DNA of 64,000 bases from Pegea sp. RAD2-039 (Eukaryota; Chordata; Thaliacea; Salpida; Salpidae). The DNA is taken from contig JAQGEQ010000127.1 in assembly GCA_034620365.1 (NCBI GenBank), forward strand, positions 35,883 to 99,882, given 5' to 3'. Shown one piece after another: positions 1-61,302 of the stretch; the first letter of the stretch is position 1; each line of letters starts with the position of its first letter. A program made the position numbers and the translations under genes. The notes beneath the pieces are model-generated. The model was not told the origin of the DNA. It ran no database searches and saw only the letters and a program-made list of their open reading frames with translations.

Positions 1-193
1 ATATGTACATTATAAAACTATTTGTTTATTTTTTTAACTATATAAAAGATTAATTATTCATCTTTAATAAAATAATAATGGTCATATTGAAATTAAATCA
101 GCTTAAAATCAAATATTTGTTGAACTTTCAATACTTTTAAAACAAAATAATTTAAGTAGAAGTAAAATATGTAAACTGGGAAATATTTTTCAG

Positions 194-3100
194 TTGACTG
201 ATTTGGAAGATGGTGATGATGATTTGAAACCTTCCAGCGTGAGTTTCTGTTTCTTCTAGATTCAGTTTGTCCGTGATTCTAATTTAAAAGTCTTCGTCCG
301 TTTGTTAAATTGATTGTATTAATGTTTGTGAAAATAATTTAACTTCTTTTGCTGCTTCACTTGCATTTGTATAATTTGAGTATCATTCGCTTTTATTCTA
401 TAAAATACTAATTATTCGAGCTTTTCATAGACTAAACAATTATAACAATTATACAGAGACACAAAATATAAAACTCAAATAAACTCAAATAAAATATATC
501 AAACATATACAAAAAATCAGTTTTCTTTCTAGCTATGATGTGTTAACGAAAAACATATCTTAAGTTTAGATTACTTTAAATTAAGGTTCAATGTCAGTAT
601 TTTATTTAAGGTGGTTTTCCGATTCCAGCATTAGTTTAAATTGTTTAAACTATTAGTTTTAAAGATATGTTTAAGCTACTAAAAAAATTTGAAACTGAAG
701 GTTGTAGTTTAAAGTCAACAAGATTGTAATCAAGTTAATTATTTTATGAAACAAAATTGTAATTTATTATTTTGATAAATGATAAAACTTGAAAATACTT
801 TTAATAAACCACTAACTTATTCCAAAAAAGTAGTAAAAAATATTTGAGTAGTTTAAAAATGATTGTCAATACATATTTTCTTTAGTTATTAGAGTTACTC
901 AAGGAATGTGACAGTGACAGCTCTTCAATCTCCTCATGGGTTAGTTTCTGTGATTAATTTATCATCACCCATTTTGTTTATTAAATCTTATATGTACTTT
1001 TTGTTTCTAAGAACTTTTTTCAAGTTATGATAATTGAATTAAATACTTGGTTTTGTATAAAAATATCAAAATTTTTTTGCTACTTTCAAAAGATAAAACA
1101 TAAAATTGTATTTTTTAGGAAACCGATTGCTCAGAAACCAACAATAATTTGGTGAATCCAGTTTTGGTAAATATTAATTTGATCGTAAACCTAATTTATT
1201 TGCCTTTAAATGTAAATTTGACTTTATAACTTACTGAAAATATTTATTTATGATTTTAGATTGAAAACGATGAAATGAAAAGCAAAGTCACTTCGATAAT
1301 TTCAGAACCTAATACGGTTAGTGAAAAATTACCATTTCTATTTGTTTCTTAGATCTAAAAACTAAAATATTGTAGATTTTGATGTTAAAAAAGTTATTGA
1401 AATAATTATTACAGATCTAAATACAAGTTACTGATTTAATTTTTCATTAAATCTATTGATAATATAGAAGATAAACTTATAAAAACTGATTTGATTGCTT
1501 TCAGACAAAGAGTAAACCATTTTAGTTTCTTTTCAAGAACTTACTAAATTGTCATTATCATACTACAGATTATTTAATATTTCATTCATTAATAGTTTAG
1601 AAATGAAAAAGTTTATGATTTAACTTCAATTCATTTTTAATTTAATCAAACTAATTTTCATTTTTATTAACAGTTTTGGTATAAAATCGAATATAATTTA
1701 AAATTTAATTGCTTGTACCTATGTTGCTATTTTTTTGGATATTTGTATTATATTAAAATAAAAACATATTAATTATTCTTTCATTGTTTTCAGGACCAAA
1801 GCATAGGTGATAATAGCAATATTCAAAATGTTGAAAGCAAACCAGTTAGTTTTGATTTAATGTTGATATTATAATGGTTTTACTTCACAAGTTTTTTTTG
1901 ATTTAAATATAAATTCTCTGTAATATTACTACAAAAAATTAAAGTAATAAATTTGTTATAACTACTTTAGAAATGTTTTATAAATTACGTTTTCAACATA
2001 AAATTAATATTATTTTTGCTCTCAACTTTATTTATATTTCAACCATTTTTTTCAGGATCAAAATATCCCATATGAAGAACCTAAGAATATAAATGTTGAA
2101 AGCAAACCGGTAAGTTTGGTTATTTGGTTTTTGTTTATCAGATACAAATGTGTAACTTTTTAGAAATTATTGATAACAAGTTAATGTTTATATAAAAATG
2201 AGTCTTCTCAATTATAAATTTAAGTTGTTCAATGCAGGAAACGGCTTTCGAGATTTTCAAGAGAAATTTGTTGAGAATAAGAGCTGTAAGTAAAAACTTA
2301 TACGTGATTTTGAATATAACGTAAAAAATTTAAAACAATTAATTTCTATCTCTCCATAAACTTTTAAAATCTCTGAATTTCATTTTAATGAATTTAAATT
2401 CTTTTTTATAGTCATGAATTCCGTTAAATAAAGTAAAATTAACTATTTCACATAGACAAAATTAAATCTTAAAACTTGAAAAATGATAAACTTGAAAATA
2501 CCTTATTCAAACCATTAACTTATTACAGAAAAGTAGTAAAGTAAATTTGAACAATTTTCATATAGTTTTTAACAAATGTTTTCTTTAGGAACAAAAAGCT
2601 AAAAAGGAAAGTCAAAGTGACAGGAGTTCAATCTCTTCATTGGTTAGTTTCTGTGATTAATTTATCATCAGTCGTTTTGTTTATAAATTCTGATGTATAG
2701 TTTTTGTTAGTCACAACTTTGGTTCAAGTTATATAAATTAGATTAAATAATTGTTGTTTTCATGAATTGATCAAATATTTTGGTGTTTTTGCTAATTTAT
2801 AAGAAAAATAACTCTAAAAAAATATGTGTTAGTTAACACTAATACCTGATGTTAAATAGAACATAAAAATGTAAAACAATTAATTTCTATCTCTCAATAA
2901 AATTTATTACCTCTGAATTTTGTTTTAATAAATTTAAAATCATTTTTTTAGTCATGAATTAAGTTAAATAAAATAAAATTAACTACTTTACAAAAACAAA
3001 ATTAAATCTTATAACTTGAAAAATGATAAAATATAAAAATACTTTATTGAAACAACTAACTTATTACAGAAAATTAGTAAAATAAATTTGAATAATTTTC

Positions 3101-6100
3101 ATATAGTTTTTAATAAATATTTTCTTTAGGAATCAAATGCTAGCAAAAAAAGTCAAAGTGACATCTGGTCAATCTCCTCATTGGTTAGTTTCTGTGATTA
3201 ATTTATTATCAGTCATTTTACTTATTAATTCTTAAAAAGGGTTTTTTTAGTTATAACTATATTTCAGGTTAAATAAATTTAATTAGATAATAGTTGTTTC
3301 CATGAAAACATCAAATAAGTTTTTTTTGTTACTTTCAAATAATAAAAGATAAACTTGTCTTTTATAGAAAGCCGATAGCGAAGAAACCAGCAATAATTTG
3401 GTGAATCCAGGTTTGGTAAGTACTAATTTGATCCTAAACATAATTTCTTTTATTTTAAATATAAATTTGCCTTATTAAAACTTACTGAAAATATTTATTT
3501 ATGATTTTAGATTGAAAAAGATAAAATGAGAAGCAAAGTCACTGCGCTAATTTCAGAACCGGATACAGTAAGTGAAAATTGATTATTTCTTTTTGTTCTT
3601 TTGACCAAATCCAAGATTATTGTAAATTTTAATAATAAAATTAATTTAGAGTTAGCTATTAAGGATATAAATAAAAGTTACTAATTCATTAAATTTATTT
3701 ATAATATAGAAGATAATCTTATAGAAACTGGTTTAATAGATTTTAGACAAAGAGTAAAACCATTTTAGTTTCGTTTCAAAAACTTACTAGATTGTCATTA
3801 TCATACAATAGAATATTAAATTTTTCATTCAATTAATAGTTTAAAAATGATTTATTGATTTTATACTTTTTGATTTAGCTTCAGTTTGTTGTTAAATTAA
3901 TCAAACTAATTTTTATTTTCCTTTAAAGTTTTGACATAAAAGAAAACATAACGTAATAATTATTTGTTTGTATTTCTGTTGCAGATTTATTTGCTGTTTT
4001 TACTATATTAAAATTCTAACTGATTAATTATTATTTTATTTTTTTCAGAAACATGGTATAGATGATAATAACAATAATCAAAATGTTGAAAGCAAACCAG
4101 TTAGTTGTGATTTAGTGTTGATATTATAATATTTTTACTTTACAAGTTTTTTCTGATTTAAATATTAACTCTCTGTAAAATTCTTGTAAAAAAATTAAAC
4201 TAATACAGTTATTGTCACTTCATTAGAAAACTTTTATAAATTACGACTTCAACATAAAATCAATCTTATTTTTTCTCTCAATTTCATTTAAATGTTAATT
4301 ATTTTTTTCAGGATCAAAATATCCCAGATGACAAACCTAAGAGTATTATTATTGAAAGCAAACCGGTAAGTTTGGTTATTCAGCTTTTCTTTGTCAGTTA
4401 CATAAATGACTCTTTATAATTATTATTGACAAGTTATTCTTTGCATCAAAATTTGATGCTTCACAAGATAAATTGTAAATTTAAGTTGTTCAATACAAGA
4501 AAACGTATTTGGAACTTATAAAAAGATAACTCGAAAAAGTTATCTGTAAATTAACACTATTACATTATGTTAAATATAACGTACAAAATTTACATTAATT
4601 AATTTCTACCTCTCTATAAACGATTAATTTCTCTGATTTTAGTTTTAATGGAGTTTAAATCATTCTTTTAGTCATGAATTAAGTTAAATAAAATCAAATT
4701 AACTACCTTACAAAAACAAAATTAAATCGTATAACATTAAAAAGAAAAAAAAACTAGAAAACACCTTTTTAAAACCAGTAACGATTTTCATAATAGTAGT
4801 AAAATAAATTTGAACAGTTTTCATATAGTTTTTAACAAATATTTTCTTTAGAAATCAAACGCTATCAAGAAATGTGACAGCGACAAGTGTTCAATCTCCT
4901 CATTGGTTAGTTTCTGTGATTAATTTATCATCAGTCATTTTGTTTATTAATTATTGTATATAGTCTTTGTTAGTCATAATTTTATTTCAAGTTATATAAA
5001 TTTAATTAAATAATAGTTGTTTTCATGAGAAAAATAAACAATTTTTTAATTTTTGCTATTTTTAAATAATAAAAGATAAACTTGTATTTTGTAGAAAACC
5101 GATTGCGGAGAAACCAGCAATAATTTGGTGAATCTAGTTTTGGTAAATATTAATTTGATCTAAAACCTAATTTGTTTTGTTTTAAATATAAATTTGCCTT
5201 CTTAAAACTTAGTTCGAATATTTATTTATGATTTTAGATTGAAAACGATGAAATAAAAAGCAAAGTCACTTCGATAATTTCAGAACCTAATACAGTTAGT
5301 GAAAATGATTGTTTCTATTTGTTGTTCTATTTAAAAATATATTTTCCTGTTTTTATAAACAGGTTTAATATAAAAAAATTATTAATGAAAATTTAGTTAT
5401 TTGTACTATATTAAATCAAAGTTGATTAATTAATTCTTTATTTTTTCAGAAACAAAGCATAGTTGATAATAGCAATATTCAAAATGTTGAAAGCAAACCA
5501 GTTAGTCGTGATTTAATGTTGATATTATAATGGTTTTATTTGAAAAGTTTTTTTCTGATTTAAATAATAATTCTATTCAATATTTCTGTGAAAACATTAC
5601 ACTAATAAAATTATTGTCACTACCTTAGACAAATTTTTTAAACTACAACTTGAATATAGAATTGATATTATTTTTTCAGTCAACTTCATTTGAACCTTAA
5701 TTATTTTATTCAGGATCAAAATATCCCAGATGAAGAACCTAAGAATATAAATGTCGAAAGCAGACCGGTAAGTTTGGTTTCGTTTATCAGTTACATATAT
5801 GATTGTTTATAATTATTATTAACAAGTTAATGTTTATAGTGAAAATGATTTTTCTTAAATTAAATTGTAAAATTAAGTTGTTCAATGCAGAAAAACAAGG
5901 TTGAAACTGGGAAGAAAGATGCCATTAAAAAATTATCTGTAAGTTAAGACGAATACCTGATGCTAAATATAAATTAAAGAATATTGAAGCAATTAATTTC
6001 TATTTAACAAAATTTTAATTTCTCTGAATTTTATTTTATTAAAATAAGAATCTTTAATTCTATAAAATGAATTAAGTAAAATATTAAATTTAAAAAACAA

Positions 6101-6367
6101 TTTGCAGAAGAAGAAGAGATTTAGAAACCTTTTGATTCGAGTTTTTACTTGTGGATGCGTAAGAAAATGTAAACTGAAAGTTTATCTTTTATTTGATTTA
6201 CTTATTTTATTTCTCAGTAATTTCGAAAACCTTACTTTTGTGATATATTTTAGCAATTTATAAAACACTTTAAAACATTCTATAATCTATTTGCTTTTAT
6301 CATTTAATTTTAATTGAAAATAAAACTTTTGTTTGTTTATTTTATTTTTCATTTTCAGAAGCTGTAG
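194..6367 (+). CDS. Microexon gene, left-arm copy (3' part; 5' end outside window)
   Basis: Unrecognised acidic and lysine-rich protein encoded by short exons, all in phase 0. Exons: 194-238, 886-939, 1119-1166, 1260-1316, 1794-1844, 2056-2109, 2238-2285, 2589-2642, 3130-3183, 3368-3415, 3511-3567, 4049-4099, 4312-4365, 4852-4905, 5095-5142, 5238-5294, 5450-5500, 5714-5767, 5891-5938, 6108-6158 and 6359-6367. All are 45-57 bases except the 9-base last exon (Lys-Leu-stop). Every splice donor is GTAAGT, GTTAGT or close to it. Exons form a repeating order of six types of 54, 48, 57, 51, 54 and 48 bases. Examples are exons ending in VESKP, and exons beginning with IEND or DQNIP. Block 2 has lost its sixth exon: the sequence near 4500 has a stop. 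All listed exons are open. The first six exons seen in the right-arm copy lie outside this window. No known domain was recognised. Confidence 0.8.
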
Positions 6368-7169
6368 TTGAATGATGGAACTGAATTGGAAATATGTTTT
6401 CTACATCTGCTGATAAACAAATTTCATTTATTTTGAGAAGTTTTGTCGAGTTAACTGCTGACGTAAATGTGACAATATTCATTCTTGTACCGTTTACATT
6501 CGATTATAAACACTATTCAAATCTTAAACATTATTTGTCGAAGCGTATCAGAATAAACAAAAATCTTTCTTAGACTTTTCTTGGTTTTTGTTTTTGGTTT
6601 CAAAAGTATACAAAAATTTCATCAGACTTTTTTTAATATAACTTTTCCTCAGATTCTAGATAACTCTGACACCTATCAAAGTATTTATAGATGTTACATA
6701 ATTAAGGAGTAATTAGTTAATAATTAATGAGCGCAATCAATGTTCCCATCTTTTCAATCTAACATAATCTTGTTTATAAAACTTGTAAAGGTTTTCTTTA
6801 AAGAATTGACTTTTCAGCCAATGACATAATCAGGTCGCTGGATTCATTTATTTTTGATATCTAAATAAATACAAACTCTACTTAATATTACTAATGTATC
6901 AAAAAACTACGGTCAGATAAACTTCTAGTATTTGATACAAGTATTTGAAGAAAAGTCCAGCTTTTATGTCTATCCCTGTCAGAGTACTTACCTTCTTGTC
7001 TACGAAGAACTTGTATTAATATTTATGTATTACTAAAAAACAAGTTTTATGAATTTAGAATTTTTATCTAAATTTGAAAAAATGTCTATAAAAATGTAAT
7101 TATTATAGAATGTTTTTAATTTTACTAGAAAAATTGATACATGAATAAATTGTAAGTTACCAAAATAAA
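6368..7169. other. Intergenic DNA within left arm
   Basis: AT-rich sequence between the microexon gene's stop codon and the tRNA-Asp gene. No ORF or RNA gene is visible, but it is well matched to 10355-11165 in the other arm. Possible 3' untranslated sequence of the microexon gene lies at its start. Confidence 0.6.
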
Positions 7170-7241
7170 CTCCCCGTCGGGGAATCGAACCCCGGTCTCC
7201 CGCGTGACAGGCGGGGATACTCACCACTATACTAACGAGGA
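7170..7241 (-). tRNA. tRNA-Asp (GTC), left arm
   Basis: A 72-base cloverleaf on the minus strand with anticodon GTC (complement at 7206-7208). The seven-pair acceptor stem starts TCCTCGT and is followed by discriminator G. The TTCGATT T-loop (B box) is standard. A TTTT run for Pol III termination lies just beyond the 3' end. No intron. It is sequence-matched to the copy at 10283-10354. Confidence 0.95.
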
Positions 7242-7250
7242 AACCGAACA

Positions 7251-7324
7251 TGGCCAGTACGGGGATGGAACCCGCGACATTCGCGTTATTAGCACGACGC
7301 TCTAACCAACTGAGCTAACCGGCC
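7251..7324 (-). tRNA. tRNA-Ile (AAT)
   Basis: A 74-base cloverleaf on the minus strand with anticodon AAT (complement at 7288-7290), acceptor stem GGCCGGT paired to ACTGGCC, discriminator A and a GGTTAGCTCAG A-box. One oddity is that the T-loop reads TTCCATC, with C where a purine is normal at position 57 in the B box. This could weaken transcription. It begins 10 bases from the tRNA-Asp gene and has no partner in the right arm. Confidence 0.88.
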
Positions 7325-8025
7325 ACGATAATCATTTAGAATTTGTAATTTATTCCAAATATGTTTACTTAATTTGAAACTTATTCTTTCCAAATATAAA
7401 TATATTTATCATATTTATATTTCATATAATCCCTAGCCATGTGATCCATATGAAGGTAGCTAATATAGTATTTATAATTGTATTATTATTGATATAACTT
7501 TATTTATATAAATCTAGTTATCTAGTAGCTTTGAAAGCGTATCAAAAATGCTTTAGTCGCTCAAGTGATATCGCCAAACATTTGATTAAAGAGTTAATAA
7601 TGTATAAATGAACGTAGCTAAGACTTCTAAATTGTATCTATATGAATAAAGTAAGTGTCTATCAGGAGTAATCTCCTATTTTTTTTTCAATCAAACATAG
7701 ATTTAATGCTAGTAATTGATAATATAGAAACTATTTATCAAAAAATAATGAAGTGAATAAAAGCGATTTTTGATTCGGTGGTAATTGAGATATGTACGTG
7801 AAACTTAGCTTTTATTATTTATTAATTATTTAATCTATATAAGCAATGATAGAAACTTTGTAACTTTTTCATTATGAAAGTAAATGTTTATTCAATAAAA
7901 TTTTAAAAATTCTTATGGAACTTAATTTCAATTTAATAAAATTTTATATTTAGAGCAGCTTAACGTTTGAAAATATTTGCTTAATACAAAAATTACTCGA
8001 AAAATTCAAATTAAAGTTGAAAAAG
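7325..8025. other. Left-only segment and resumption of arm homology
   Basis: Bases up to about 7817 have no counterpart in the right arm. Together with the tRNA-Ile they are either an insertion on the left or a deletion on the right. From 7818 the inverted match resumes. No coding potential was seen. Confidence 0.5.
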
Positions 8026-8859
8026 AAAACAGTAGAAACATGCGATGCATGTAGAGTATTTTTCTACAGCTGGTGGAATTACAGAGAAACATTTGTTTGT
8101 GAAAGTTCAGGGGTATTTCCAATAAATTCATTCAATAGAAGCATATGCTGCTCATACTACCGAATAAAAAAGTAACTTAGTAATGGATTGAATGAGGGCT
8201 AGCAGAAAAAACAATTAGTGCTTCCGAAAAGATAAATCGAAAGGGAGAAGCAAGAAGAAAGTCGATCCCAAACATGTAAGTTGAATTTATTTTGGTTAAA
8301 ATCAAACTGATACTTTATTTTTCATGTTCAGTATTTGCTAGAAGAAATGAACCGTTTGTTAAGCGGTGAGTTTCCCAAACACCTTATTAGCAATTTATTG
8401 TTACTGTTGCTAGTAATATTAGTCAATCTATGAATACTTCCCTGATCAAACCATCACTGTGTTTTGCTGCAGTGAGATTCTTGATGAGCAAACCTTTCAT
8501 TTAGTTTTTGTACATACAACTGCTTCAGCGTCGCTTCTGTTTTTACATAAATCTGACAGCACTAAAAGTACACATTGTGGGTTGCGCGCTTAACAGGGTA
8601 AATTGAAAATTCCTTTTACTTTTACCTTAGTTTTGTTTAATTTTATTTATTCAACCAGGTGGATGCAATCTGTAAGTTTGCTGCCATGAATTTCAACTTT
8701 ATATTCAGAAAGTTTCATGAAACTAATGCTGCAATAGTAGCTATTAACTTAAAAATAAAACGTCTACAATTAGATCTAAAACTTACTACCATAATTCATA
8801 AACATCGTCTTGCGGAAAGTAAAAAAACATATATTCAAAAAGCTGAAGAAAACTTTTAA
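8026..8859 (+). pseudogene. Decayed nuclear hormone receptor-like gene
   Basis: A frame from about 8035 reads TCDACRVFF, then RETFVCES, CPIN-like FPINS, FNRS and CCSYYRIKK. This is the order of the second half of a nuclear-receptor zinc-finger DNA-binding domain: Cys-x2-Cys, RVFF, then Cys and CxYCRxKKC. Two cysteines are replaced and a stop stands where the KKC cysteine is expected. Further stops and frame changes follow. A plausible donor (GTAAGT) occurs near 8276. At 8659-8859 an open stretch reads AAIVAINL, RLQLDLK, then HKHRLAESKKTYIQKAEENF. This resembles helices 7-9 of a receptor ligand-binding domain. The first zinc finger is missing. It lies in the palindrome loop. The family assignment is an inference from these motifs; the loss of function is clear. 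Confidence 0.5.
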
Positions 8860-9477
8860 CATTTCAAAGAAATCATTTTTAACTTTTTGCCAAAATATAA
8901 GTATAGTCATAAGGCTTTATCTAATATCAATATAATATCGATTTATATAAACAGAAATAGCAAAGAAATCACTTTATAGGTATTTTACAAAATTGTTAAC
9001 AATAAAACTGTCTCTTTATCAGTTCTTAAATTGAAAAAATAATATTGAAATGATTACAGTTTGAACAAAATGAATGAATAAGTAACAAGTCTGTTTTCAT
9101 GATTTTTATTTCGGTTGATTTGGTTTACATTTGCAAGACTATAAATATATGAACAACCCAAAGATGAAAGCATGTGTGTTGAAAACTTTTCTTATATTGA
9201 AAGTTATATTTTTTACTTTATCGTTTGTTTGCTAGTTTTGTACTGAACATGTTTTAGTTATTTGATGTGAATTCATAATATTTATTTATAACTTAAGTTA
9301 ACAAAGATAATACTACTTCTTAGCTGAACCTAAATCTTAATGCCTGGTGTAAGTTGTAAAGTAGAATATTGTCAGAACTTTTTGAAAATAGTATATATAC
9401 TATTTTTGTCTAATAAATTATTCAACTACAGCCTGATTTTTAGCAGCTCCTGATTCTGTATATTAATCAGCTAGAAA
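8860..9477. other. AT-rich loop sequence
   Basis: No gene is visible. A TATA-like string, TATATATAC, occurs at about 9391, roughly 85 bases before the ORF at 9478 and could belong to its promoter. Confidence 0.35.
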
Positions 9478-9846
9478 ATGAACAATTTTGAAATGAATAA
9501 ATATTCTGAATGTGTGAAAGTTTTAGTTGTTGGAGGAAAAACGTCTTTGATATTGCAAGGTAGTCTATTTGATTACATTTTTACGAGACCGACTGGAAAT
9601 GAGCTTATAGAACTTCACCTTAAGTACCAAGATAAAGATTTTGATGGATTTGATTGTTTCTCTGATTCACTTGTGAAAGATAATATTTTGTCAGCAGGAT
9701 TTGTTTACTGGAAATACGAAATATCTGGATTAGTAAAGGTTTACAAATTGAAAGATTTTAAAGCCAGCAGTAACTCACGTGATCTTACTATACTGAGAAT
9801 ATTCTTTCAAATTGGAACAAAGTTTTCTTTCACAACTTTTCTTTGA
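9478..9846 (+). CDS. Hypothetical protein in palindrome loop
   Basis: A 122-codon ORF from an ATG. It is unusually long for this AT-rich background and uses less extreme codons than chance ORFs nearby. The product is soluble-looking and mixed alpha/beta in composition: VKVLVVGGKTSLILQ near the start, a DKDFDGFDCF stretch in the middle and a hydrophobic end. I recognise no domain. A second open stretch in another frame starts just before its stop and runs to 10073, but it lacks an ATG. The two may be parts of one gene joined by splicing or separated by a frameshift. The ORF lies outside both arms, so it is single copy here. It may also be a fragment of an older gene. Confidence 0.35.
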   Translation: MNNFEMNKYSECVKVLVVGGKTSLILQGSLFDYIFTRPTGNELIELHLKYQDKDFDGFDCFSDSLVKDNILSAGFVYWKYEISGLVKVYKLKDFKASSNSRDLTILRIFFQIGTKFSFTTFL

Positions 9847-10282
9847 AAAAGGACAAATCTGTAGAAAGCCATTTTGTTGCTTTAGAGTTATTAAAACATT
9901 GTCTGTTGATTGCTGAAAAATTCAAACCAACTAAAACCATAATGAAATACAAAACATCTGCGTTCTCATTTTTTATAGTACAGATCTTGGATGTATTTGG
10001 CAATATGTACGGAACTAAACTCTTCTATATAAGTGGCATATTTGTTAGATTAATCAAAAACCTTGTTTTTTAACTTTAATTTGACTTTTTCGAGTAATTT
10101 TTATATTAAAAAACATTTTCAAACGTTAAGCTGCTCTAAATATAAAATTCTATTAAATTGAAATTAAGTTCAATAAAAAGTTTTAAAATTTTTTTGAATA
10201 AACATTTACTTTCATAATGAAAAATTTACAAAGTTTCTATCATTGCTTATATAAATGAAATAATTAATGAAAAAAATCTGTG

Positions 10283-10354
10283 TCCTCGTTAGTATAGTGG
10301 TGAGTATCCCCGCCTGTCACGCGGGAGACCGGGGTTCGATTCCCCGACGGGGAG
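10283..10354 (+). tRNA. tRNA-Asp (GTC), right arm
   Basis: A 72-base cloverleaf on the plus strand, inverted partner of the gene at 7170-7241, with the same anticodon GTC, the same TTCGATT T-loop and a TTTT run shortly downstream. Both copies keep all stems, so both could be functional. No tRNA-Ile accompanies it. Confidence 0.95.
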
Positions 10355-11165
10355 TTTATTTTGGTACCTTACAATTTATTCATTTGTCAATTTTTTAGTA
10401 AAATTAAAAACATTTTTTAACTTTTTATAATAAATACATTTTTATAGACATTTTTACAAATTTAGATAAAAATTCTAAATTCATAAAACTTGTTTTTTAG
10501 TAATACATAAATATTAATACAAGTTCCTCGTAGACAAGAAGGTAAGTACTCTGACAGGGATAGACATAAAAGCTGGACTTTTCTTCAAATACTTGAATCA
10601 AATACTAGAAGTTTATCTGATCGTAGTTTTTTGATACATTAGTAATATTAAGTAGAGTTTGTATTTATTTAGATATCAAAAATAAATGAATCCAGCGACC
10701 TGATTGTGTCATTGGCTGAAACGTCAATTCTTTAAAGAAAACCTTTACAAGTTTTATAAACAAGATTATGTTAGATTGAAAAGATGAGAACATTGATTGC
10801 ACTCATTAAATATTAATTAATTACTCCTTAATTATGTAACATCTATAAATAATTTGAGAGCTGTCAGAGTTATCTAGAATCTGAGGAAAAGTTATATTAA
10901 AAAAAGTCTGATGAAATTTTTGTATACTTTTGAAACCAAAAACAAAAACCAAGAAAAGTCTAAGAAAGATTTTTGTTTATTCTGATACGCTTCGACAAAT
11001 AATGTTTAAGATTTGAATAGTGTTTACAATCAAATGTAAACGGTACAAGAACGACTATTATCACATTTACGTCCGCAATTAACTCGACAAAACTTCTCAA
11101 AATAAATGAAGTTTGTTTATCAGCAGATGTACAAAACATATTTCCAATTCAGTTCCATCATTCAA
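10355..11165. other. Intergenic DNA within right arm
   Basis: Mirror of 6368-7169. AT-rich, with no ORF or RNA gene. It would include the 3' untranslated region of the minus-strand microexon gene that ends at 11166. Confidence 0.6.
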
Positions 11166-14100
11166 CTACAGCTTCTGAAAATGAAAAATAAAATAAATGA
11201 ACAAAAGTTTTATTTTTCAATTAAAATTAAATGATAAAAGCAAATAGATTATAGAATGTTTTTTATATTGGTAAATTATAACACAAAAGTTAGGTTTTCA
11301 AATAAATAAGAAATAAAATAAGTAAATCATATAAAAGATAAAATTTCAGTTTACATTTTCTTACGCATCCACAAGTAAAAACTCGAATCAAAAGGTTTCT
11401 AAATCTCTTCTTCTTCTGCAAATTGTTTTTTAAATTAAATACTTTATTTAATTCATGTTATAGAACTAAAGATTCCTAATTTAATAAAATAAAATTCAGA
11501 GAAATTAAAATTTTGTTAAATAGAAATTAATTGCTTCAATATTCTTTAATTAATATTTAGCATCATGTATTAGTCTTAACTTACAGATAATTTTTTGATG
11601 GCATCTTTTTTCCCGGTTTCAACCTTGTTTTTCTGCATTGAACAACATAATTTTACAATTTAATTTAAGAAAAATCATTTTCACTATAAGCACTAACTTA
11701 TTAATAATAATTATAAACCATGATATATGTAACTGATAAACGAAATCAAACTTACCGGTCTGCTTTCGACATTTATATTCTTAGGTTCTTCATCTGGGAT
11801 ATTTTGATCCTGAATAAAAAAATTAAGGTTTAATTGAAGTTGACTGAAATAATAATATCAATTCTATATTCAAGTTGTAGTTTAAAAAATTTGTCTAAAG
11901 TAGTGACAATAATTTTATTAGTGTTATGTTTTCACAGAAATATTAAACAGAATTATTATTTAAATCAGAAAAAAACTTTTCAAATAAAACCATTATAATA
12001 TCAACATTAAATCACAACTAACTGGTTTGCTTTCAACATTTTGAATATTGCTATTATCAACTATGCTTTGTTTCTGAAAAAAATAAAGAATTAATTAATC
12101 AACTTTACTTTTAATATAGTACAAATAACTAAATTTTCATTAATAAATTTTTTATATTAAACCTGTTTATAAAAACAGGAAGATATATTTTTGAATAGAA
12201 CAACAAATAGAAACAATCATTTTCACTAACTGTATTAGGTTCTGAAATTATCGAAGTGACTTTGCTTTCTATTTCATCGTTTTCAATCTAAAATCATAAA
12301 TAAATATTTTCAGTAAGTTTTAAGAAGGCAAAATTATATTTAAAACAAAATAAATTAGGTTTAAGATCAAATTATTATTTACCAAAACTAGATTCACCAA
12401 ATTATTGCTGGTTTCTCCGCAATCGGTTTTCTACAAAAAAATGTTATCTTTTATCTTTTGAAAGTTGTAAATGTTAAAAGATTGTTTATTTTTCTCCTGA
12501 AGATATCTATTATTTAATTAAATTTATATAACTTGAAGTAAAATTATTACTAACAAAAACTATATACAATAATTAATAAACAAAATGGCTGATGATGAAA
12601 TAATCACAAAAACTAACCAATGAGGAGATTGAACACTTGTCACTGTCACATCTCTTGATAGCATTTGATTTCTAAGGAAAACATTTGTTAAAAACTGTAA
12701 GAAAACTGTTCAAATTTATTTTACTACTATTATGAAAATCGTTAGTGGTTTTAAAAAGTTGTTTTCTAGTTTAATTTTCGTTTTAATGTTATACAATTTA
12801 ATTTTGTTTTTGTAAGGTAGTTAATTTGATTATATTTAACTTAATTCATGACTAAAAGAATGATTTAAACTCCATTAAAACTAAAATCAGAGAAATTAAT
12901 CGTTTATAGAGAGGTAGAAATTAATTACTGTAAATTTTGTACGTTATATTTAACATAATGTTTTAGTGTTAATTTACAGATAACTTTTTCGAGTTATCTT
13001 TTTATAAGCTCCAAATACGTTTTCTTGCATTAAACAACTTAAATTTACAATTTATCTTGAGAAGCATCAAATTTTGATACAAACAATAACTTGTCAATAA
13101 TAATTATAAAGAGTCATTTATGTAACTGACAAAGAAAAGCTGAATAACCAAACTTACCGGTTTGCTTTCAATAATAATATTCTTAGGTTTTTCATCTGGG
13201 ATATTTTGATCCTGAAAAAAATGATTAACATTTAAATGAAATTGAGAGAAAAAATAAGATTGATTTTATGTTGAAGTCGTAATTTATAAAAGTTGTCTAA
13301 TGTAGTGACAAAAATTTTATTAGTTTGATTTTTTTACAAGAAATTTACAGAGAGTTAATATTTAAATCAGAAAAAACTTGTAAAGTAAAACTATTATAAT
13401 ATTAACATTAAATCACAACTAACTGGTTTGCTTTCAACATTTTGAATATTGTTATTATCATCTATACCATGTTTCTGAAAAAAATAAAATAATAATTAAT
13501 CAGTTATAATTTTAATATAGTAAAACCAGCAAATAAATCTGCAACAGAGATACAAACAAATAATTATTACGTTTTGTTTTCTTTTATGTCAAAACTTTAA
13601 AGGAATATAAAAATTAGTTTGATTAATTTAACAACAAACTGAAGCTAAATCAAAAAGTTTAAAATCAATAAATCATTTTTAAACTATTAATTGAATGAAA
13701 AATTTAATATTCTATTGTATGATAATGACAATCTAGTAAGTTTTTGAAACGAAACTAAAATGGTTTTACTCTTTGTCTAAAAGCTATTAAACCAGTTTCT
13801 ATAAGTTTATCTTCTATATTATAAATAAATTTAATGAATCAGTAACTTTTATTTATATCCTTAATAGCTAACTCTAAATTAATTTTATTCTTAAATTTAC
13901 AATAATCTTGGTTTTGGTCAAAAGAACAAAAAGAAATAATCAATTTTCACTTACTGTATCCGGTTCTGAAATTATCGCAGTGACTTTGCTTTTCATTTCA
14001 TCTTTTTCAATCTAAAATTATAAATAAATATTTTCAGTAAGTTTTAATAAGGCAAATTTATATTTAAAATAAAAGAAATTAGGTTTAGGATCAAATTAGT

Positions 14101-17100
14101 ACTTACCAAAACTGGATTCACCAAATTATTGCTGGTTTCTTCGCTATCGGCTTTCTAAAAAAGACAAGTTTATCTTTTATTATTTGAAAGTAACAAAAAC
14201 AACTTATTTGATGTTTTCATAGAAACAACTATTATCTAATTAAATTTATTTAACCTGAAATATAGTTATAACTAAAAAAAACCTTTTTAAGAATTAATAA
14301 GCAAAATGACTGATAATAAATTAATCACAGAAACTAACCAATGAGGAGATTGACCAGATGTCACTTTGACTTTTCTTGCTAGCATTTGATTCCTAAAGAA
14401 AATATTTGTTAAAAACTATATGAAAATTATTCAAATTTACATTACTAATTTTCTGTAATAAGTTAGTTGTTTCAATAAAGTATTTTTATGTTTTATCATT
14501 TTTCAAGTTATAAGATTTAATTTTGTTTTTGTAAAGTGGTTAATTTGATTTTACTTAACTTAATTCATGAATAAAAATGATTTTAAAATTATTAAAACAA
14601 AATTCAGAGGTAATAAATTTTATTGGGAGTTAGAAATTAATTGCTTTACATTTTTATGTTCTATTTAACATCAGGTATTAGTGTTAACTAACACATATTT
14701 TTTTAGAGTTATTTTTCTTATAAATTAGCAAAAACACCAAAATATTTGATCGTTTCATGAAAACAACAATTATTTAATCAAATTTATATAACTTGAACCA
14801 AAGTTGTGACTAACAAAAACTATACATCAGAATTTATAAACAAAATGACTGATGATAAATTAATCACAGAAACTAACCAATGAGGAGATTGAACTCCTGT
14901 CACTTTGACTTTCCTTTTTAGCTTTTTGTTCCTAAAGAAAGAATTTGTTAAAATCTATATGAAAATTGTTCAAATTTACTTTACTACTTTTCTCTAATAA
15001 GTTAATGGTTTGAATAAGGTATTTTCAAGTTTATCATTTTTCAAGTTATAAGATTTAATTTTGTCTATGTAAAATAGTTAATTTTACTTTATTTAACGTA
15101 ATTATTGACTATAAAAAAAGATTTTAAATTCATTAAAATGAAATTCAGAGATTTTAAAAGTTTATGGAGAGATAGAAAATAATTGCTTTAAATTTTTTAC
15201 GTTATATTCAAAATCACGTATAAGTTTTTACTTACAGCTCTTATTCTCAAAAAATTTCTCTTGAAAATCTCGAAAGCTGTTTCCTGCATTGAACAACTTA
15301 AATTTATAATTGAGAAGACTCATTTTTATATAAACATTAACTTGTTATCAATAATTTCTCAAAAGTTACACATTTATATCTGATAAACAACAACCAAATA
15401 ACCAAACTTACCGGTTTGCTTTCAACATTTATATTCTTAGGTTCTTCATATGGGATATTTTGATGCTGAAAAAAATGATTGAAATTTAAATAAAGTTGAG
15501 AGCAAAAATAATATTAATTTTATGTTGAAAACGTAATTTATAAAACATTTCTAAAGTAGTTATAACAAATTTATTACTTTAATTTTTTCAGTAATATTAC
15601 AGAGAATTTATCTTTAAATCAAAAAAAAACTTGTGAAGTAAAACCATTTCATTATCAATATTAAATCAAAACTAACTGGTTTGCTTTCAACATTTTGAAT
15701 ATTGCTATTATCACCTATGCTTTGTTCCTGAAAACAATGAAAGAAAAATTAGTCTGTTTTTATTCTAATATAGTAAAAACAGCAAATGAAATAGCAACAA
15801 AGGTACAAGCTATTAAATTGTTATTTTCTTTTATATCAAAAATGTTAATAATAATGAAAATTAGTTTGATTAAATTAAAAATGAATTGAAGTTAAATCAT
15901 AAATTTTTTATTTCTAAACTATTAATGAATGAAATATTAAATAATCTGTAGTATGATAATGACAATCTAGTGAGTTTTTGAATAGAAGCTATAATGGTTT
16001 GCTCTTTGTCTGAAAGCAATCAAATCAGCTTCTATAAGATTATCTTCTATATTATCAATAAACTTAATGAAAAATTAAATCAGTAGCTTGTATTTAGATC
16101 TGTAATAATTATTTCAATAACTTGTTTAACATTAAAATTTACAATGTTTTAGTTTTTAGATCAAAGAAACAAATAGAAATGGTAATTTTTCACTAACTGT
16201 ATCAGGTTCTGAAATTATCGCTGTGACTTTGCTTTTCATTTTATCGTTTTCAATCTAAAATCATAAATAAATATTTTCAGTAAGTTTTAATAAGGCAAAT
16301 TTACATTTAAAGGAAAATAAATTAGGTTTACGATCAAATTAGTATTTACCAAAACTGGATTCACCAAATTATTGTTGGTTTCTGAGCAATCGGTTTCCTA
16401 GAAATTACAACTTTATGTTTTATCTTTTAAAAGTAGCAAAAAAGTTTTGATATCATTGTATACAAAACCAAGTATTTAATTCAGTTATCATAACTTGAAA
16501 AAAAGTTCTTAGAAACAAAAAGTACATATAAGATTTAATAAACAAAATGGGTGATGATAAATTAATCACAGAAACTAACCCATGAGGAGATTGAAGAGCT
16601 GTCACTGTCACATTCCTTGAGTAACTCTAATAACTATAGAAAATATGTATTGACAACCATTTTTAAACTACTCAAATATTTTTTACTACTTTTTTGTAAT
16701 AAGTTAGTGGTTTAATTAAAGTATTTTCAAGTTTTATCATTTATCAAAATAATAAATTACAATTTTGTTTTGTAAAATAATTAATTTGATTACAATCTTG
16801 TTGACTTTAAACTACAACCTTCAGTTTCAAATTTTTTTAGCAGCTTAAACATAACTTTAAAACTAATAGTTTAAACAATTTAAGCTAATGCTAAAATCGG
16901 AAAACCACCTTAAATAAAAGACTGACATTGAACCTTAATTTAAAGTAATCTAAACTTAAGATATGTTTTTCGTTAACACATCATAGCTAGAAAGAAAACT
17001 GATTTTTTGTATAACTGTGATATATTTTATTTGAGTGTATTTGAGTTTTATATTTTGTGTCTCTGTATAATTGTTATAATTGTTTAGTCTATGAAAAGCT

Positions 17101-18750
17101 CGAATAATTAGTATTTTATAGAATAAAAGCGAATGATACTCAAATTATACAAATGCAAGTGAAGCAGCAAAAGAAGTTAAATTTGTTTCACAAACATTAA
17201 TACAATCAATTTAACAAACGGATAAAAACTTTTAAATTAGAATCACAGACAAACTGAATCTAGAAGAAACAGAAACTCACGCTGGAAGGTTTCAAATCAT
17301 CACCACCATCTTCCAAATCAGTCAACTGAAAAATATTTCCCAGTTTTACATATTTTACTTCTACTTAAATTATTTTGTTTTAAAAGTATTGAAAGTTCAA
17401 CAAATATTTGATTTTAATCTGATTTAATTTCAATATGACCATTATTATTTTATTAAAGATGAATAATTAATCTTTTATATAGTTAAAAAAATAAACAAAT
17501 AGTTTTATAATGTACATATTTTATATCAACGGTTAAAATTTACCATTTCTTTTTCTTCTTCAATAACTTCAACAACTGATGAGGTTTCCTATAAGAAATA
17601 GAGTTAAACAAAAACTGTAATAACTTATTCAGTCAACTGTTATCATTTATTAATTTGCATTAAGTATGAATAAGGATGAATCAAATACTTTCTGATAAAA
17701 TACTAAAATTATATTTACCAATCAGTCTTAAAACTACTACAAAAGACAAGCAAGTGTTATCAATAAGGAAAATGTTTATTTAACTCACTGTATTGAAGTC
17801 TATAGCATTTTCAACAATATCCCCAACAACAACTTTGTTAACAGCTGAAAATATTTTTAATTTTGTATTAATACTTAAAATTCTACTTTTTAATTGAAAA
17901 CATAAACAAAACTATGACCAAAAAGTAACAAGTTTCAGAAAAATCAGATTAAATTTATTATTTTTAGAACAAACATTTTGTCTGTTACACTTACTTAGGT
18001 ACTTCATGTATTCCAACTAAAAATAAAATCATAAGTTATTTTTACTTAATAACAGAATCTTTTAATTAAAAAATAAATTCTGCAAGGGTTTATTGAATCA
18101 AATATAATTAAATGAGCTTGAAAAAGTAAATACTTGATATATTATTAGGTGTTTTTAACATAATAATTGAAATAAATCATTTTACCAACAAACATTTCCA
18201 TTGTTGCAGGTTAAAAATATTTTGTTGAATTGTACCTAAAAATTTTTATATGTTAATATATGAGGTTAGAATCAATTAATTAATTCTCTAACCTTTAAAT
18301 TTCGTTTGTTCAAAATTACCTTTAAATAAAAATGTAGTTTTAAAAACTTATTATCAGTTGCATTAAGACATTTAAGTTAAAATATAATCATTTAAAACAA
18401 AAGTAAACTTACCAAACAATGATATTTCAAACAATACTAATTTTGGCTGAAATATAAAAAATTAGTTAATTTGAACAAAGCAAGCTTGTTATCAATTTTA
18501 GAATAGTTATTTGAAAGTGATATTAATAAAGTTAACAATTTTATTTACTTACCAGTTTAAAATAGATATCGTTTAAATGTAGGTGATTCACTTCATATAA
18601 GTGAACTTCCATAGTATGATCTAATATCAAAATAATAATATTTAAATATGAACTACAAAGTGTTAATGTTATTTATGATTTATTACAAAGTTAAAAAAGA
18701 AAGTAATAGATTGAAAAATACTTACTAAGTAAGTCTAGTCGCTTATCCAT
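11166..18750 (-). CDS. Microexon gene, right-arm copy, complete 28-exon model
   Basis: Spliced model on the minus strand: 18726-18750 (ATG), 18553-18620, 18413-18446, 18186-18235, 17995-18016, 17789-17844, 17544-17588, 17281-17325, 16580-16633, 16350-16397, 16198-16254, 15677-15727, 15412-15465, 15236-15283, 14878-14931, 14339-14392, 14107-14154, 13955-14011, 13424-13474, 13158-13211, 12618-12671, 12383-12430, 12231-12287, 12023-12073, 11756-11809, 11585-11632, 11365-11415 and 11166-11174. The sum is 1,347 bases, or 448 residues. The first six exons change phase but join without a stop. From the seventh on, every exon is phase 0. The protein begins MDKRLDLLNHTMEVHLY and has no clear signal peptide. 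The middle is a threefold repeat of six exon types rich in Asp, Glu, Lys and Ser. The end is basic with a CGC motif. The architecture recalls microexon genes of some parasites and aphid effectors, but the sequence is not recognised. Confidence 0.75.
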
Positions 18751-22114: not shown

Positions 22115-22925
22115 TTTATTTATTTATTTATTTATTTATTACAATAAATGTGAAGGAGGGTGCCTAAAGAGAGCACCTCTCGCTAACACACATTCTCACA
22201 AATTAGATCTATTTGACGTGTAAACGAAAAAGTATATGACAATGAAGAATTGCACAGAATCATAGTATTGTAAAAGAGAAAAATTCACAGTTTAGAAATG
22301 GCAATGTTGGCGATATTATAACAATTCAGCTTTTTCTTGAACAGCATAAGTGATTTTGACATGACAATCTCTGATGGCAGATTGTTCCATGTACTGATTG
22401 TGCGGTATGAGAAAAAACTTAATCTGGTTAACGTAGCTGGTGGAGTGGGCTTATTAAGATGTAATTTATGTCTTCTAAGTTGATATAACTTGAGGGAGGG
22501 ACTAATGGAGAAAAAGTCATCAAACTGAAGATCAATTAGGTTGTGAATAATTTTAAAAATCAGAATAAGGTCGTATTTAATTCTTCGGATTTCCAAAGTA
22601 TCTAGATTGAAGAAGCTGAGACGATGCTTATAACTCTCGTATTTAATATTAAGTTTCCTGCAAACCAATCTCGTAAATTTTGCCTGAACAGATTCGATTT
22701 TTCTGATATCACCAACTTGATATGGCATCCATGCACTGACATTGTATTCAAGAATAGGGCGTATGTACAGTTTGAAAAGGTTCACGTAAAACCATGGATT
22801 TTTAGAATTAAAAGTCTTTATGATGAGGTGGACAAGCCTGATAGATTTTCCAAAGATTCTGGAAACATAACTGTGCCATTTGAAGTCAGATGTCAGAGTA
22901 ATGCCGAGGTCTATGACTTTATCCA
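22115..22925 (-). mobile_element. 5'-truncated LINE with RT C-terminal domain
   Basis: The minus-strand ORF of 213 codons (22285-22926) ends in a stop. It carries the region C-terminal to the RT catalytic core of a CR1/Jockey-like element: DLGITLTSDFKWHSYV, then RPILEYNVSAWMPY, a central FNLDTLEIRRIKYDL, FFSYRTISTWNNLPSEIV and the end KLNCYNIANIAISKL. After the stop come about 170 bases of 3' untranslated region with a hairpin, then an AAAT repeat tail ending at 22115. The 5' truncation falls inside an RME-8 exon at about 22926. The ORF is uninterrupted, so the insertion is fairly young. A near-identical 3' end lies at 60976-61167. Confidence 0.88.
22154..22181 (-). promoter_or_regulatory. 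LINE 3' UTR hairpin
   Basis: GGTGC and GCACC arms surround a short CTCTTTAG-type loop, placed about 35 bases before the AAAT tail. The same hairpin is present in the second copy at 61107-61131. Such 3' stem-loops commonly serve as recognition sites for the element's own reverse transcriptase; that role is inferred here. Confidence 0.55.
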
Positions 22926-58827: not shown

Positions 58828-59916
58828 ATGTCTTTAGTTAAAGAAAGTTCTCAAATCTTGTCGCAAAACAAGAAGTATGTTGCTACCTTGGAAACATTAA
58901 AAGATTTAAATAGAGTGGATATGATGATATCTCCAATGAATTTCGACAAAGTACAAATAATCACTCTCCAGTCAGTTACTGATCTATATATGAAGGAAAA
59001 ATCTAATTTGAAGGATGAAGAACAGATTAAGTCTCTCACTAAATGGAGTGCCACAAAAATGCTGCTGAGTCATAGAGAAAATTCGGACATTAAAAAGTCC
59101 ATGTTGATTGTAGTTGGTACAGAATCAGATGGTTATCTTGTAATGGTGAATACAAGTATGGATCCTCTCAATCTTTATGATTATCTTCCATATATTAAAG
59201 TAACAGCAACTGATACTCTCATTACATTGATTACCAAAGATAATTTTAGAATGTATGAGAGATCAAAGAATGAATCCTTGAAATATCTGAGTCAAAAGCA
59301 TGATAAAAGTGGAACTATTTGCTTTCTAGAAAAACAGAAACTCTTAGCGACTTATGGATATCATTGTGACTGTGGGCATGTAGAAGTATTTGATTTAAAA
59401 AGTATGAAAATTCGTATGGTACTTGAAGCCCATAAACATAAAGTGGTGGCTATTTGTGGTGATTCAAACAGTGATATGATTGTTACTGCTTCTGAACGTG
59501 GAACTGTTATTCGAGTATTTTTTGCTTCAACAGGAAAACTCTTTCATGAGTTTAGGAGTTCTTTAGTTGGAGGAACGATTACTGCACTTGCTATTAGTTC
59601 TGATTGTGAAATAGTAGCAGCTGTTTATTCTGATGGTCTTGTTAATTTATTCAAGCTACCAAAGTTTTGCGAACAGGATGCCGAAAAATCTATGATTGTT
59701 GATACTATGAGTAGACTTTTATCAACTTTCATACCATTTGCTGATTATATTAGTCAACTTCCTGTATCTAAGTGGTTTTATACTGAAGCTGATGTAACTG
59801 TGGTTCAGTCGACTGGTAGTGACGTGCGAACTGACCAGGGCGGTGCACCACAACCGCCGGCGGTCCACTGCCTTCAACCAAGCACTGATGCAAAAGGGAG
59901 GCAGGACCATCTTTGA
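58828..59916 (+). CDS. PROPPIN (Atg18/WIPI-type) WD-repeat protein, split by viral-LINE insertion
   Basis: The ORF is 362 codons, intronless. Residues 1-329 are host. WD-type blades include HKHKVVAICGDSNSDMIVTA followed by SERGTVIRVFFASTGKLFHEF. This last stretch is the hallmark before the phosphoinositide-binding motif of PROPPINs, which recruit autophagy factors to PI3P membranes. The expected L/FRRG is FRSS here (242-245), so lipid binding through that motif would be lost. Residues 330-362 are read from antisense viral sequence and end at a chance stop. The last blade lies 1,352 bases downstream (61168-61302) in the same phase. Before the insertion the gene would have had 373 codons, a normal WIPI4/Atg18-type length. 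Whether the chimeric ORF is expressed is unknown. Confidence in the family is fair; confidence in the break is high. Confidence 0.75.
   Translation: MSLVKESSQILSQNKKYVATLETLKDLNRVDMMISPMNFDKVQIITLQSVTDLYMKEKSNLKDEEQIKSLTKWSATKMLLSHRENSDIKKSMLIVVGTESDGYLVMVNTSMDPLNLYDYLPYIKVTATDTLITLITKDNFRMYERSKNESLKYLSQKHDKSGTICFLEKQKLLATYGYHCDCGHVEVFDLKSMKIRMVLEAHKHKVVAICGDSNSDMIVTASERGTVIRVFFASTGKLFHEFRSSLVGGTITALAISSDCEIVAAVYSDGLVNLFKLPKFCEQDAEKSMIVDTMSRLLSTFIPFADYISQLPVSKWFYTEADVTVVQSTGSDVRTDQGGAPQPPAVHCLQPSTDAKGRQDHL
59812..59815 (+). repeat. Candidate target-site duplication, left
   Basis: ACTG here and at 61168-61171 bracket the insertion exactly. The duplication is short, and its main support is that removing 59816-61171 restores the PROPPIN frame. 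Confidence 0.5.
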
Positions 59917-60975
59917 GGCCAGTTCGTCGGATTGTGTCGGACAAATGGTGGTTCTTGCAAAGACCGAATGCGGTTCTTAGTGTCTCAAAGTGGGCCAAAG
60001 TGACCTGGACACTGGCGACCTCACCGGGCTTGCCAATACTAACGAGGGGTTCACCGTCGTTTACGTATACGGTGGAGTTCATCTTGCCAGGACCTAAGGT
60101 ACTGTATCTGCAATGACGGAGCTCAACACCAAACTCAACGGCGGTGAGAAGGTTGTCGCGACATGATGCAAACGGAACAATTGAGACAATGTTCCTATGT
60201 GGGCTCATTGCAAATTGGTCAATGTGGCACATTGTCAGTCTACGGCCAAACGGGCCGATACCAAACTTCCGATGCATCCAAACACCAAGTTTATTGAGCC
60301 AAAATAGATCGAGCAGTGCTTGGTACAACGCCTCTCTGAAAGTGTTGTCAGGCTGTCGTACATAGATAGTATCATGGTTGTAATCCCAGATTTTATGTTG
60401 CGCTGTTTTCCCGCCATTGGTTCGATAACAGACCGTATCATTCTGGATGGTGAAAAATCCATCCTTGACAGGTCCCGATACAACAGATGGCTGGAACGTA
60501 TACATTAACACTGGGCGCCCAAGGCTTAATACAGCATGCATATCTAAGTAATAGTCGATGTCAGACATGATTATGACGTGGCGATCTGATATGGGATCAC
60601 ATCTGTAATCCTGTCGCAGGTCAGCCAAACACCGGAACTCACACAAACCATCAACGTCAGACTCACGTCGTGAGGGTGACATGACGTAGGGGAGATAACC
60701 ACGTGTGGTGACAAAATCAATCATCATGTCGACAGCGCTATTACGCTCTGTGGCTGCGTCACCATGCGAGTGTCCTTTACTTACAGCAACTTCAAATTGC
60801 TCGAGTTGCTGTTGTACCGCCGAACGGTACTGGGCCGCGGCAGGATACGTCCGTCTGTGACGGGATATCATCCGCTGGCGAAGACTCTCAACACGATTGG
60901 CATACCAACTAGATCTACACATTTTGCAAGCAGTCGCACTAAGGAGCCAGGCCCCCGCGCATTGCCATTGCCATG
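59816..60975 (-). pseudogene. Endogenous nodavirus-like replicase fragment
   Basis: The block is much richer in G and C than everything around it. On the minus strand an ORF of 384 codons (59768-60922) is open across it; about the first 369 residues are viral and the last 15 are antisense host sequence. Motifs in order are DIDYY (121-125), YTFQP (141-145), FTIQND (157-162), a Gly-Gly (170-171), IWDY (178-181) and LVSIGKPGE (293-301). They fit the N-terminal capping-type region of protein A of nodaviruses and related positive-strand RNA viruses. No polymerase palm motifs are present, so only the 5' part of the viral gene was captured. The open frame suggests a recent event or retained coding. 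The neighbour on the right is a LINE 3' end. Confidence 0.75.
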
Positions 60976-61167
60976 GCCAACATTGCCATTTCTAAACTGT
61001 GAATTTTTCTATTTTACAATACTATGATTCTGTGCAATTCTTCATTGTCATATACTTTTTCGTTTACATATCAAATAGATCTAATTTGTGAGAATGTGTG
61101 TTAGCGAGAGGTGCTCTCTTTAGGCACCCTCCTTCACATTTATTGTAATAAATAAATAAATAAATAA
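60976..61167 (+). mobile_element. LINE 3' end fused to viral fragment
   Basis: Near-identical to the last 190 bases of the LINE at 22115-22310: it shares ACATTGCCATTTCTAAACTG, the same 3' untranslated region with the GGTGC/GCACC hairpin, and the AAAT tail. It contains only the last codons of the ORF. It is on the plus strand and its tail abuts the resumed PROPPIN frame. The join to viral sequence lies in a GCCATTGCC-rich stretch giving microhomology. Confidence 0.9.
61107..61131 (+). promoter_or_regulatory. LINE 3' UTR hairpin, second copy
   Basis: GGTGC (61110-61114) pairs with GCACC (61124-61128) around TCTCTTTAG. The sequence is identical to the copy at 22154-22181, which supports a shared active source element. 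Confidence 0.55.
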
Positions 61168-61302
61168 ACTGCTGTTCATCTTTTTAAGGAAACAGAATAC
61201 GTTGTTATGGAGCTGGTTAAAAAGAATCAGCAGAAAATATTTTATAAAATTAATTTACGGAATGCGCAAATTGATTCTGTTGATGTCGTTGGCGAATATT
61301 AA
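61168..61302 (+). pseudogene. Displaced 3' end of PROPPIN gene
   Basis: Directly after the AAAT tail an open frame reads TAVHLFKETEYVVMELVK, then IFYKINLRNAQIDSV and DVVGEY, then TAA at 61300-61302. It is in the same phase as codon 329 of the host part upstream and has the length and strand-rich character of a final WD blade. It carries the second ACTG at its first bases. It is now separated from its promoter and start codon by the insertion, unless that block is spliced out. Confidence 0.75.

What the first reader, a model, noticed from the sequence alone, without database searches (positions are those of the whole stretch)
59812..61171. Virus-LINE chimera inserted in frame-breaking position in a PROPPIN gene
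Seen directly: a GC-rich antisense nodavirus-like replicase fragment is joined to a LINE 3' end with AAAT tail and bracketed by ACTG. The host codon phase is identical on both sides, since (61168-58828) minus the insert of 1,356 is divisible by three. Known: LINE reverse transcriptases can switch to other RNAs during target-primed synthesis. Inference: this is a single-event endogenisation of an RNA virus with both host junctions and the enzymatic culprit still legible. Such complete records are rare.
Basis: partly seen in the sequence, partly recalled or inferred. Interest (0 to 1): 0.92.

Follow-up and report, generated by a model that had tools for sequence, protein, structure and literature searches.

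The report
Virus piece pasted beside jumping gene
A backwards piece of an RNA-virus gene, joined to the tail of a jumping gene, interrupts one copy of a many-copy host gene, and uninterrupted copies elsewhere in the same genome show exactly where it landed; it was likely pasted in by the jumping gene's own copying enzyme in a single event.

Summary
The finding is real, with one corrected boundary and a revised mechanism. Window 59801-61167 is an insert in a PROPPIN-like gene: an antisense nodavirus-like replicase fragment (59801-60959; Pfam Noda_Vmethyltr E=1.6e-51; nodavirus polymerase 8fm9 E=8e-18), a 16-nt filler, and the last 192 nt of a young LINE ending in a TAAA-repeat tail. 10 of 10 fetched PROPPIN paralogues from the same genome lack the insert; the nearest aligns to the joined flanks over 1,105 bp with 15 mismatches and no gap. 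The viral sequence was found only at this site, in 7 near-identical copies on 6 contigs: one insertion, later duplicated with its locus. The virus is antisense to the LINE, which plain template switching onto viral plus-strand RNA would not give. I favour twin priming, proposed for antisense L1 chimeras (PMC13174262, passages read). Composite virus-retroelement insertions are known (hsEBLN-2/AluSx), so this is a new variant of a known kind.

The parts
58828..59800 (+). 5' part of the interrupted PROPPIN-like gene (324 codons plus one base)
   Evidence: PF21032 E=3e-11; Atg18/WIPI chains in the PDB, best E=1.7e-12
59797..59800 (+). left copy of the 4-bp target-site duplication, ACTG
   Evidence: empty sites in 10 of 10 fetched paralogues
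59801..61167 (.). whole insert, 1,367 bp
   Evidence: empty-site comparison; 7 copies in the genome
59801..60959 (-). antisense fragment of a nodavirus-like replicase gene, open in one frame
60356..60790 (-). nodavirus capping (Noda_Vmethyltr) domain, profile positions 2-147 of 148
60960..60975 (.). 16-nt filler at the virus-LINE join, repeating nearby LINE sequence; one copy of the insert (C82) has 6 nt less of it
60976..61167 (+). last 192 nt of a young LINE, with a TAAA-repeat tail
   Evidence: 2 mismatches of 192 to the reference copy; family copies
61168..61171 (+). right copy of the target-site duplication, ACTG
61172..61302 (+). 3' part of the PROPPIN-like gene (last 43 codons and stop), cut off from the reading frame by the insert

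Best explanation
The insert at 59801-61167 joins a backwards piece of a nodavirus-like replicase gene to the last 192 bases of a LINE between two copies of a 4-base target site, and it was likely made in one LINE integration by twin priming. Shown: the three-part anatomy, the empty site, the target duplication, the orientations, and the finding of the viral sequence at this one site only. Inferred: the LINE endonuclease nicked the PROPPIN-like gene, and the bottom-strand end primed on LINE RNA and was copied for 192 nt. The opposite, top-strand end primed on a viral plus-strand RNA and was copied towards the viral 5' end, which would give the antisense orientation. The two cDNAs were then joined through a short filler copied from LINE sequence. 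Afterwards the interrupted locus was duplicated, giving 7 copies in the assembly. The reading frame of the host gene loses its last 43 codons and gains 38 unrelated ones before a stop; damage to that copy's protein is predicted, not tested.
For: Empty site: 10 of 10 fetched paralogues, one aligned over 1,105 bp with 15 mismatches and no gap. Single site: the viral sequence gave 7 matches by protein and 7 by family profile, all at this locus, with the same flanks. LINE: 13 of 13 fetched non-chimeric copies have different right flanks; the 40 best of 3793 candidates are 98-100% identical over about 2.3 kb; reverse transcriptase domain E=4.8e-39. Orientation: virus on the minus strand, LINE on the plus strand; antisense partners are attributed to twin priming in PMC13174262 (passages read). 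Filler: a 10-base match to the first 30 nt of the LINE part, equalled by 0 of 1143 viral 16-mers.
Against: 0 of 7 LINE copies whose left end was visible (one of them ambiguous) has an inverted arm of the same young family; inverted LINE pieces near L009 are only 85-88% identical, so older. In human L1, 5'-inverted copies nearly always have microhomology at the left junction (28 of 605 without), which cannot be tested here for want of a close virus, and short duplications were tied to 5'-truncated, not inverted, copies (PMC2912911, passages read). Target duplications of other copies of this LINE, judged by eye, are short or unclear.
Confidence: 0.55

Rival explanations
1. Template switching: the LINE reverse transcriptase copied 192 nt of LINE RNA, jumped to a viral minus-strand RNA and went on, in one event.
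For: One target duplication around the whole insert; slippage-like filler at the join; this needs no second priming.
Against: Needs minus-strand RNA, which is scarcer and held in replication complexes in plus-strand RNA viruses (recalled). The right viral edge seems internal to the gene rather than at a viral end: in 10 relatives examined of 33, the equivalent point lies roughly 69-97 residues from the start (offsets that ignore gaps, corrected by eye for one), against about 56 viral codons here.
Confidence: 0.25
2. Viral cDNA made separately was captured by end joining while the 5' end of a LINE insertion was being repaired.
For: Templated filler of the kind left by end joining (interpretation recalled); either orientation is possible.
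Against: Needs a second, independent source of viral cDNA at the same moment; no other viral fragment was found in the genome.
Confidence: 0.13
3. Two successive insertions: first the LINE end, later the viral piece at its left edge.
For: None direct; the inner join has filler.
Against: One target duplication encloses both parts; 10 of 10 fetched paralogues lack both; the chimera's LINE part begins where virus and filler end.
Confidence: 0.05
4. Assembly or contamination artefact joining viral cDNA to host sequence.
For: The window ends at a contig end and the locus lies in repeats, where assemblers err.
Against: 7 copies on 6 contigs carry both junctions and differ by one substitution (C86, second copy), 6 nt of filler (C82) and 8 nt of tail (C252). 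No raw reads were available.
Confidence: 0.02

Closest known systems
hsEBLN-2 bornavirus insertion followed by AluSx within one direct repeat (PMC2912400; passages read)
   Same: RNA virus and retroelement in one composite insertion, attributed to LINE machinery
   Different: There a viral mRNA copy with poly(A), a negative-strand virus, a vertebrate and an Alu partner; here an internal antisense replicase fragment of a nodavirus-like virus joined to a LINE's own tail
eBxnv-1, nodavirus-like element in a Bel/Pao LTR retrotransposon of Bursaphelenchus xylophilus (PMC5177903; parts 1 and 2 of 4 read)
   Same: Nodavirus replicase sequence captured by a retrotransposon; present in some strains and absent in others
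   Different: LTR element and presumed copy-choice; here a LINE, a target duplication, an empty site and a readable inner join
Antisense LINE-1 chimeras with 5S rRNA, tRNA, U5 or mRNA (PMC13174262; abstract and passages read)
   Same: Partner RNA upstream of and antisense to a LINE 3' end; twin priming proposed
   Different: Mammalian L1 with cellular RNAs; the words virus and viral do not occur in that text

Membership tests
Non-retroviral endogenous viral element | Viral sequence within host DNA with host sequence on both sides | tested here: met
   PROPPIN flanks on both sides in 7 of 7 copies; empty sites
Nodavirus-like replicase | Nodavirus capping domain | tested here: met
   PF19222 174.4 bits against a cut-off of 30
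Nodavirus-like replicase | RNA polymerase domain | not testable with these tools
   that part of the gene is not in the insert; the match to 8fm9 covers chain residues 91-356 of 1011
LINE insertion by target-primed reverse transcription | Target-site duplication | tested here: met
   ACTG on both sides, once in empty sites; only 4 bp
LINE insertion by target-primed reverse transcription | LINE 3' end with tail at the right junction, 5'-truncated family copies elsewhere | tested here: met
LINE insertion by target-primed reverse transcription | Endonuclease cleavage motif shared with other copies | not tested
   no logo of target sites was made
Twin-priming chimera | Upstream segment in opposite orientation to the LINE 3' end | tested here: met
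Twin-priming chimera | Microhomology between target end and template at the left junction | not testable with these tools
   no close viral relative; the three best are 35-41% identical in protein
Twin-priming chimera | Same LINE family makes 5' inversions elsewhere | tested here: inconclusive
   0 of 7 copies with a visible left end; small sample
PROPPIN (WIPI/Atg18) | Family profile match | tested here: met
   PF21032 43.5 bits against a cut-off of 30
PROPPIN (WIPI/Atg18) | FRRG lipid-binding motif (recalled, not from a call) | tested here: not met
   reads FRSS in the window copy and in P0037-P0039, FRSC in the diverged homologue on C3; hence called PROPPIN-like

The most novel reading that the evidence does not exclude
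A LINE captured a plus-strand RNA virus by twin priming inside a rapidly amplifying gene array, and transcription of the host gene now runs through up to 7 antisense copies of viral replicase, so that one accident created and multiplied a ready-made source of antiviral small RNA.
Probability: 0.07. Interest if true: 0.85.

Novelty: new variant of a known kind. Interest (0 to 1): 0.56.

Why it matters
How RNA viruses that have no reverse transcriptase enter germlines is usually inferred from worn remains. Here the likely agent (a young LINE), both host junctions, the inner join and the unoccupied site are all present in one genome, with the nearest empty copy about 1.4% diverged (15 of 1,105). 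The orientation argues that a virus-LINE join can arise by twin priming and not only by template switching. The many-copy PROPPIN-like family offers natural controls: empty paralogues for the site and duplicated copies for dating.

Tried and rejected
Searches that found nothing: a protein search with the viral fragment, none of 3457 candidates at E<=1e-3, probably because full-length replicases fall outside its length limits; a scan of viral contigs, none of 12 pattern matches confirmed. The phage collection gave one partial noda-like record, 22% of the query covered.

Considered and rejected: the chimera as a mobile composite element (7 of 7 copies have the same flanks); the ACTG at 59812 as the target duplication; the right viral edge as the viral genome's 5' end (an internal break looks likelier from 10 relatives examined of 33; not decisive, since a shorter start at the fragment's first ATG is possible). 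Amplification driven by the viral piece: unlikely, since many more paralogues without it are also amplified.

Host not named: nematode cuticle collagen gave no match, but its control genomes were silent too, so this is uninformative. COX1 was not found. Nuclear-receptor domains are present (13 matches), which suggests an animal (recalled link). The 18S search never ran.

Literature: eight searches of open-licence papers listed no antisense LINE-RNA-virus chimera; from the listings I opened PMC5177903 (parts 1-2 of 4), PMC13174262 (abstract, passages), PMC10057545, PMC2912911 and PMC2912400 (passages only).

Full report
What is there. Window 58828-61302 holds a PROPPIN-like gene (PF21032 E=3e-11; Atg18 and WIPI chains) interrupted by 1,367 bp of foreign DNA in three parts. 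59801-60959 is open in one minus-strand frame from end to end. It matches the nodavirus capping domain (Noda_Vmethyltr E=1.6e-51, domain at 60356-60790) and a solved nodavirus polymerase (8fm9, chain residues 91-356 of 1011, E=8e-18). 60960-60975 is a filler. 60976-61167 is the last 192 nt of a LINE, with a TAAA-repeat tail.

Not chance. Of 2000 mononucleotide shuffles of the viral part none keeps an open frame. GC is 0.504 in the viral part, 0.328 in the host gene and 0.297 in the LINE part. A search with another noda-like replicase gave 36 proteins, that replicase among them; 33 of 36 match the fragment at E<=1e-3 in a comparison against those 36 alone, the three best at 35-41% identity. The source virus was thus noda-like, and no near relative was found.

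The empty site. The genome carries a large PROPPIN-like family: the 40 DNA places scored, of 137 candidates, are 91% identical or more, 6 of them insert-bearing; a protein search gave 129 matching stretches, some of them fragments, decayed copies or pieces of one gene. I fetched the site from 10 paralogues, five at about 98% and five at about 92%; 10 of 10 lack both viral and LINE parts. The one read in full (C272) aligns to the joined window flanks over 1,105 bp with 15 mismatches and no gap. That fixes the target duplication as ACTG, 59797-59800 and 61168-61171; a fifth base, A, could belong to either tail or target. Three outside proteins of the family (92, 77 and 63% identical) also read through the site.

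One event, then duplication. The composite was found 7 times, on 6 contigs, with the same PROPPIN flanks. The viral sequence was found nowhere else in the genome by protein (7 matches) or by family profile (7 matches). Two copies lie 13,287 bp apart on one short contig, and the contigs share kilobases of flank, mostly at 99-100%. The copies differ by one substitution, 6 nt of filler and 8 nt of tail. I cannot say how many of the 7 are separate array members and how many are alternative assemblies of one; two on one contig is the safe minimum.

The LINE. 13 of 13 fetched non-chimeric copies have different right flanks. The 40 copies scored, the best of 3793 candidates, are 98-100% identical over about 2.3 kb. 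The ORF carries a reverse transcriptase domain (E=4.8e-39). Of 14 copies looked at, 7 show a left end, at different points (one, L038, ambiguous). The piece in the insert differs from the reference at two adjacent bases of 192; at one of these another copy (1 of 14) agrees with it. The LINE is therefore young.

Effect on the host gene. Without the insert the frame reads 367 residues; as found it has 324 host residues, 38 unrelated ones and a stop at 59914, losing 43. Phase is kept because insert plus duplication is 1,371 bp. Loss of function is a prediction; many paralogues with a frame open through the matched part remain.

Mechanism. The viral piece is antisense to the LINE. A catalogue of mammalian L1 chimeras attributes same-orientation partners to template switching or RNA ligation and opposite-orientation partners to twin priming (PMC13174262, passages read). 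Twin priming lets the viral plus strand, usually the abundant one (recalled), be the template. The filler repeats nearby LINE sequence (10-base match; 0 of 1143 viral 16-mers do as well), as expected where two ends are joined, though reverse-transcriptase slippage could do the same. Against: no inverted arm of the same young family in the 7 copies with a visible left end; inverted pieces near L009 are 85-88% identical, so older. In human L1, inverted copies nearly always show left-junction microhomology (28 of 605 without), and short duplications went with truncated copies (PMC2912911, passages read). The microhomology cannot be tested here without a close virus. I give twin priming 0.55, minus-strand template switching 0.25, separate cDNA capture 0.13, two successive insertions 0.05 and artefact 0.02.

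Comparison with the known. A nodavirus sequence captured by a retrotransposon is known (eBxnv-1 in an LTR element, PMC5177903). A virus and a retroelement inside one direct repeat is known (hsEBLN-2 with AluSx, PMC2912400). LINE-driven integration of a plus-strand virus's RNA is reported in cultured cells (PMC10057545, passages read). Eight searches of open-licence papers listed no antisense LINE-RNA-virus chimera. I file it as a new variant of a known kind.

Novel reading. The insert is antisense to the virus with respect to host-gene transcription, so transcripts would carry antisense viral sequence. There is no expression or small-RNA evidence, and paralogues without the insert are amplified too; hence a low probability.

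Host. Not named. Nuclear-receptor domains (13 matches) suggest an animal; that link is recalled.

Noticed in passing
window 58828-59800 and genome-wide: A PROPPIN-like gene family is strongly amplified (129 matching stretches, some fragments), and the copies read here have FRSS where the lipid-binding FRRG motif (recalled) is expected.
   Followed up: partly
window 1-17519: A large palindrome with arms of about 7.2 kb at 95% identity around a 3-kb centre (1-7247 against 10277-17519); tRNA-Asp and tRNA-Ile genes lie at the inner ends.
   Followed up: no
window 25000-55250: Array of repeats spaced about 4.7-7.3 kb with PTTQ-repeat, mucin-like reading frames built of 15-nt units.
   Followed up: no
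window 22119-22918, minus strand: Another copy of the same LINE, truncated to about 800 bp, 99.4% identical to the reference.
   Followed up: partly
L048 (G000:C199:14660-15060): One PROPPIN-like paralogue departs from the others after GTTAAAAAGAT, so its 3' end has unrelated sequence.
   Followed up: no
L007 (G000:C82) and L006 (G000:C252): The filler and the LINE tail have already changed length by 6 and 8 nt between duplicated copies.
   Followed up: yes
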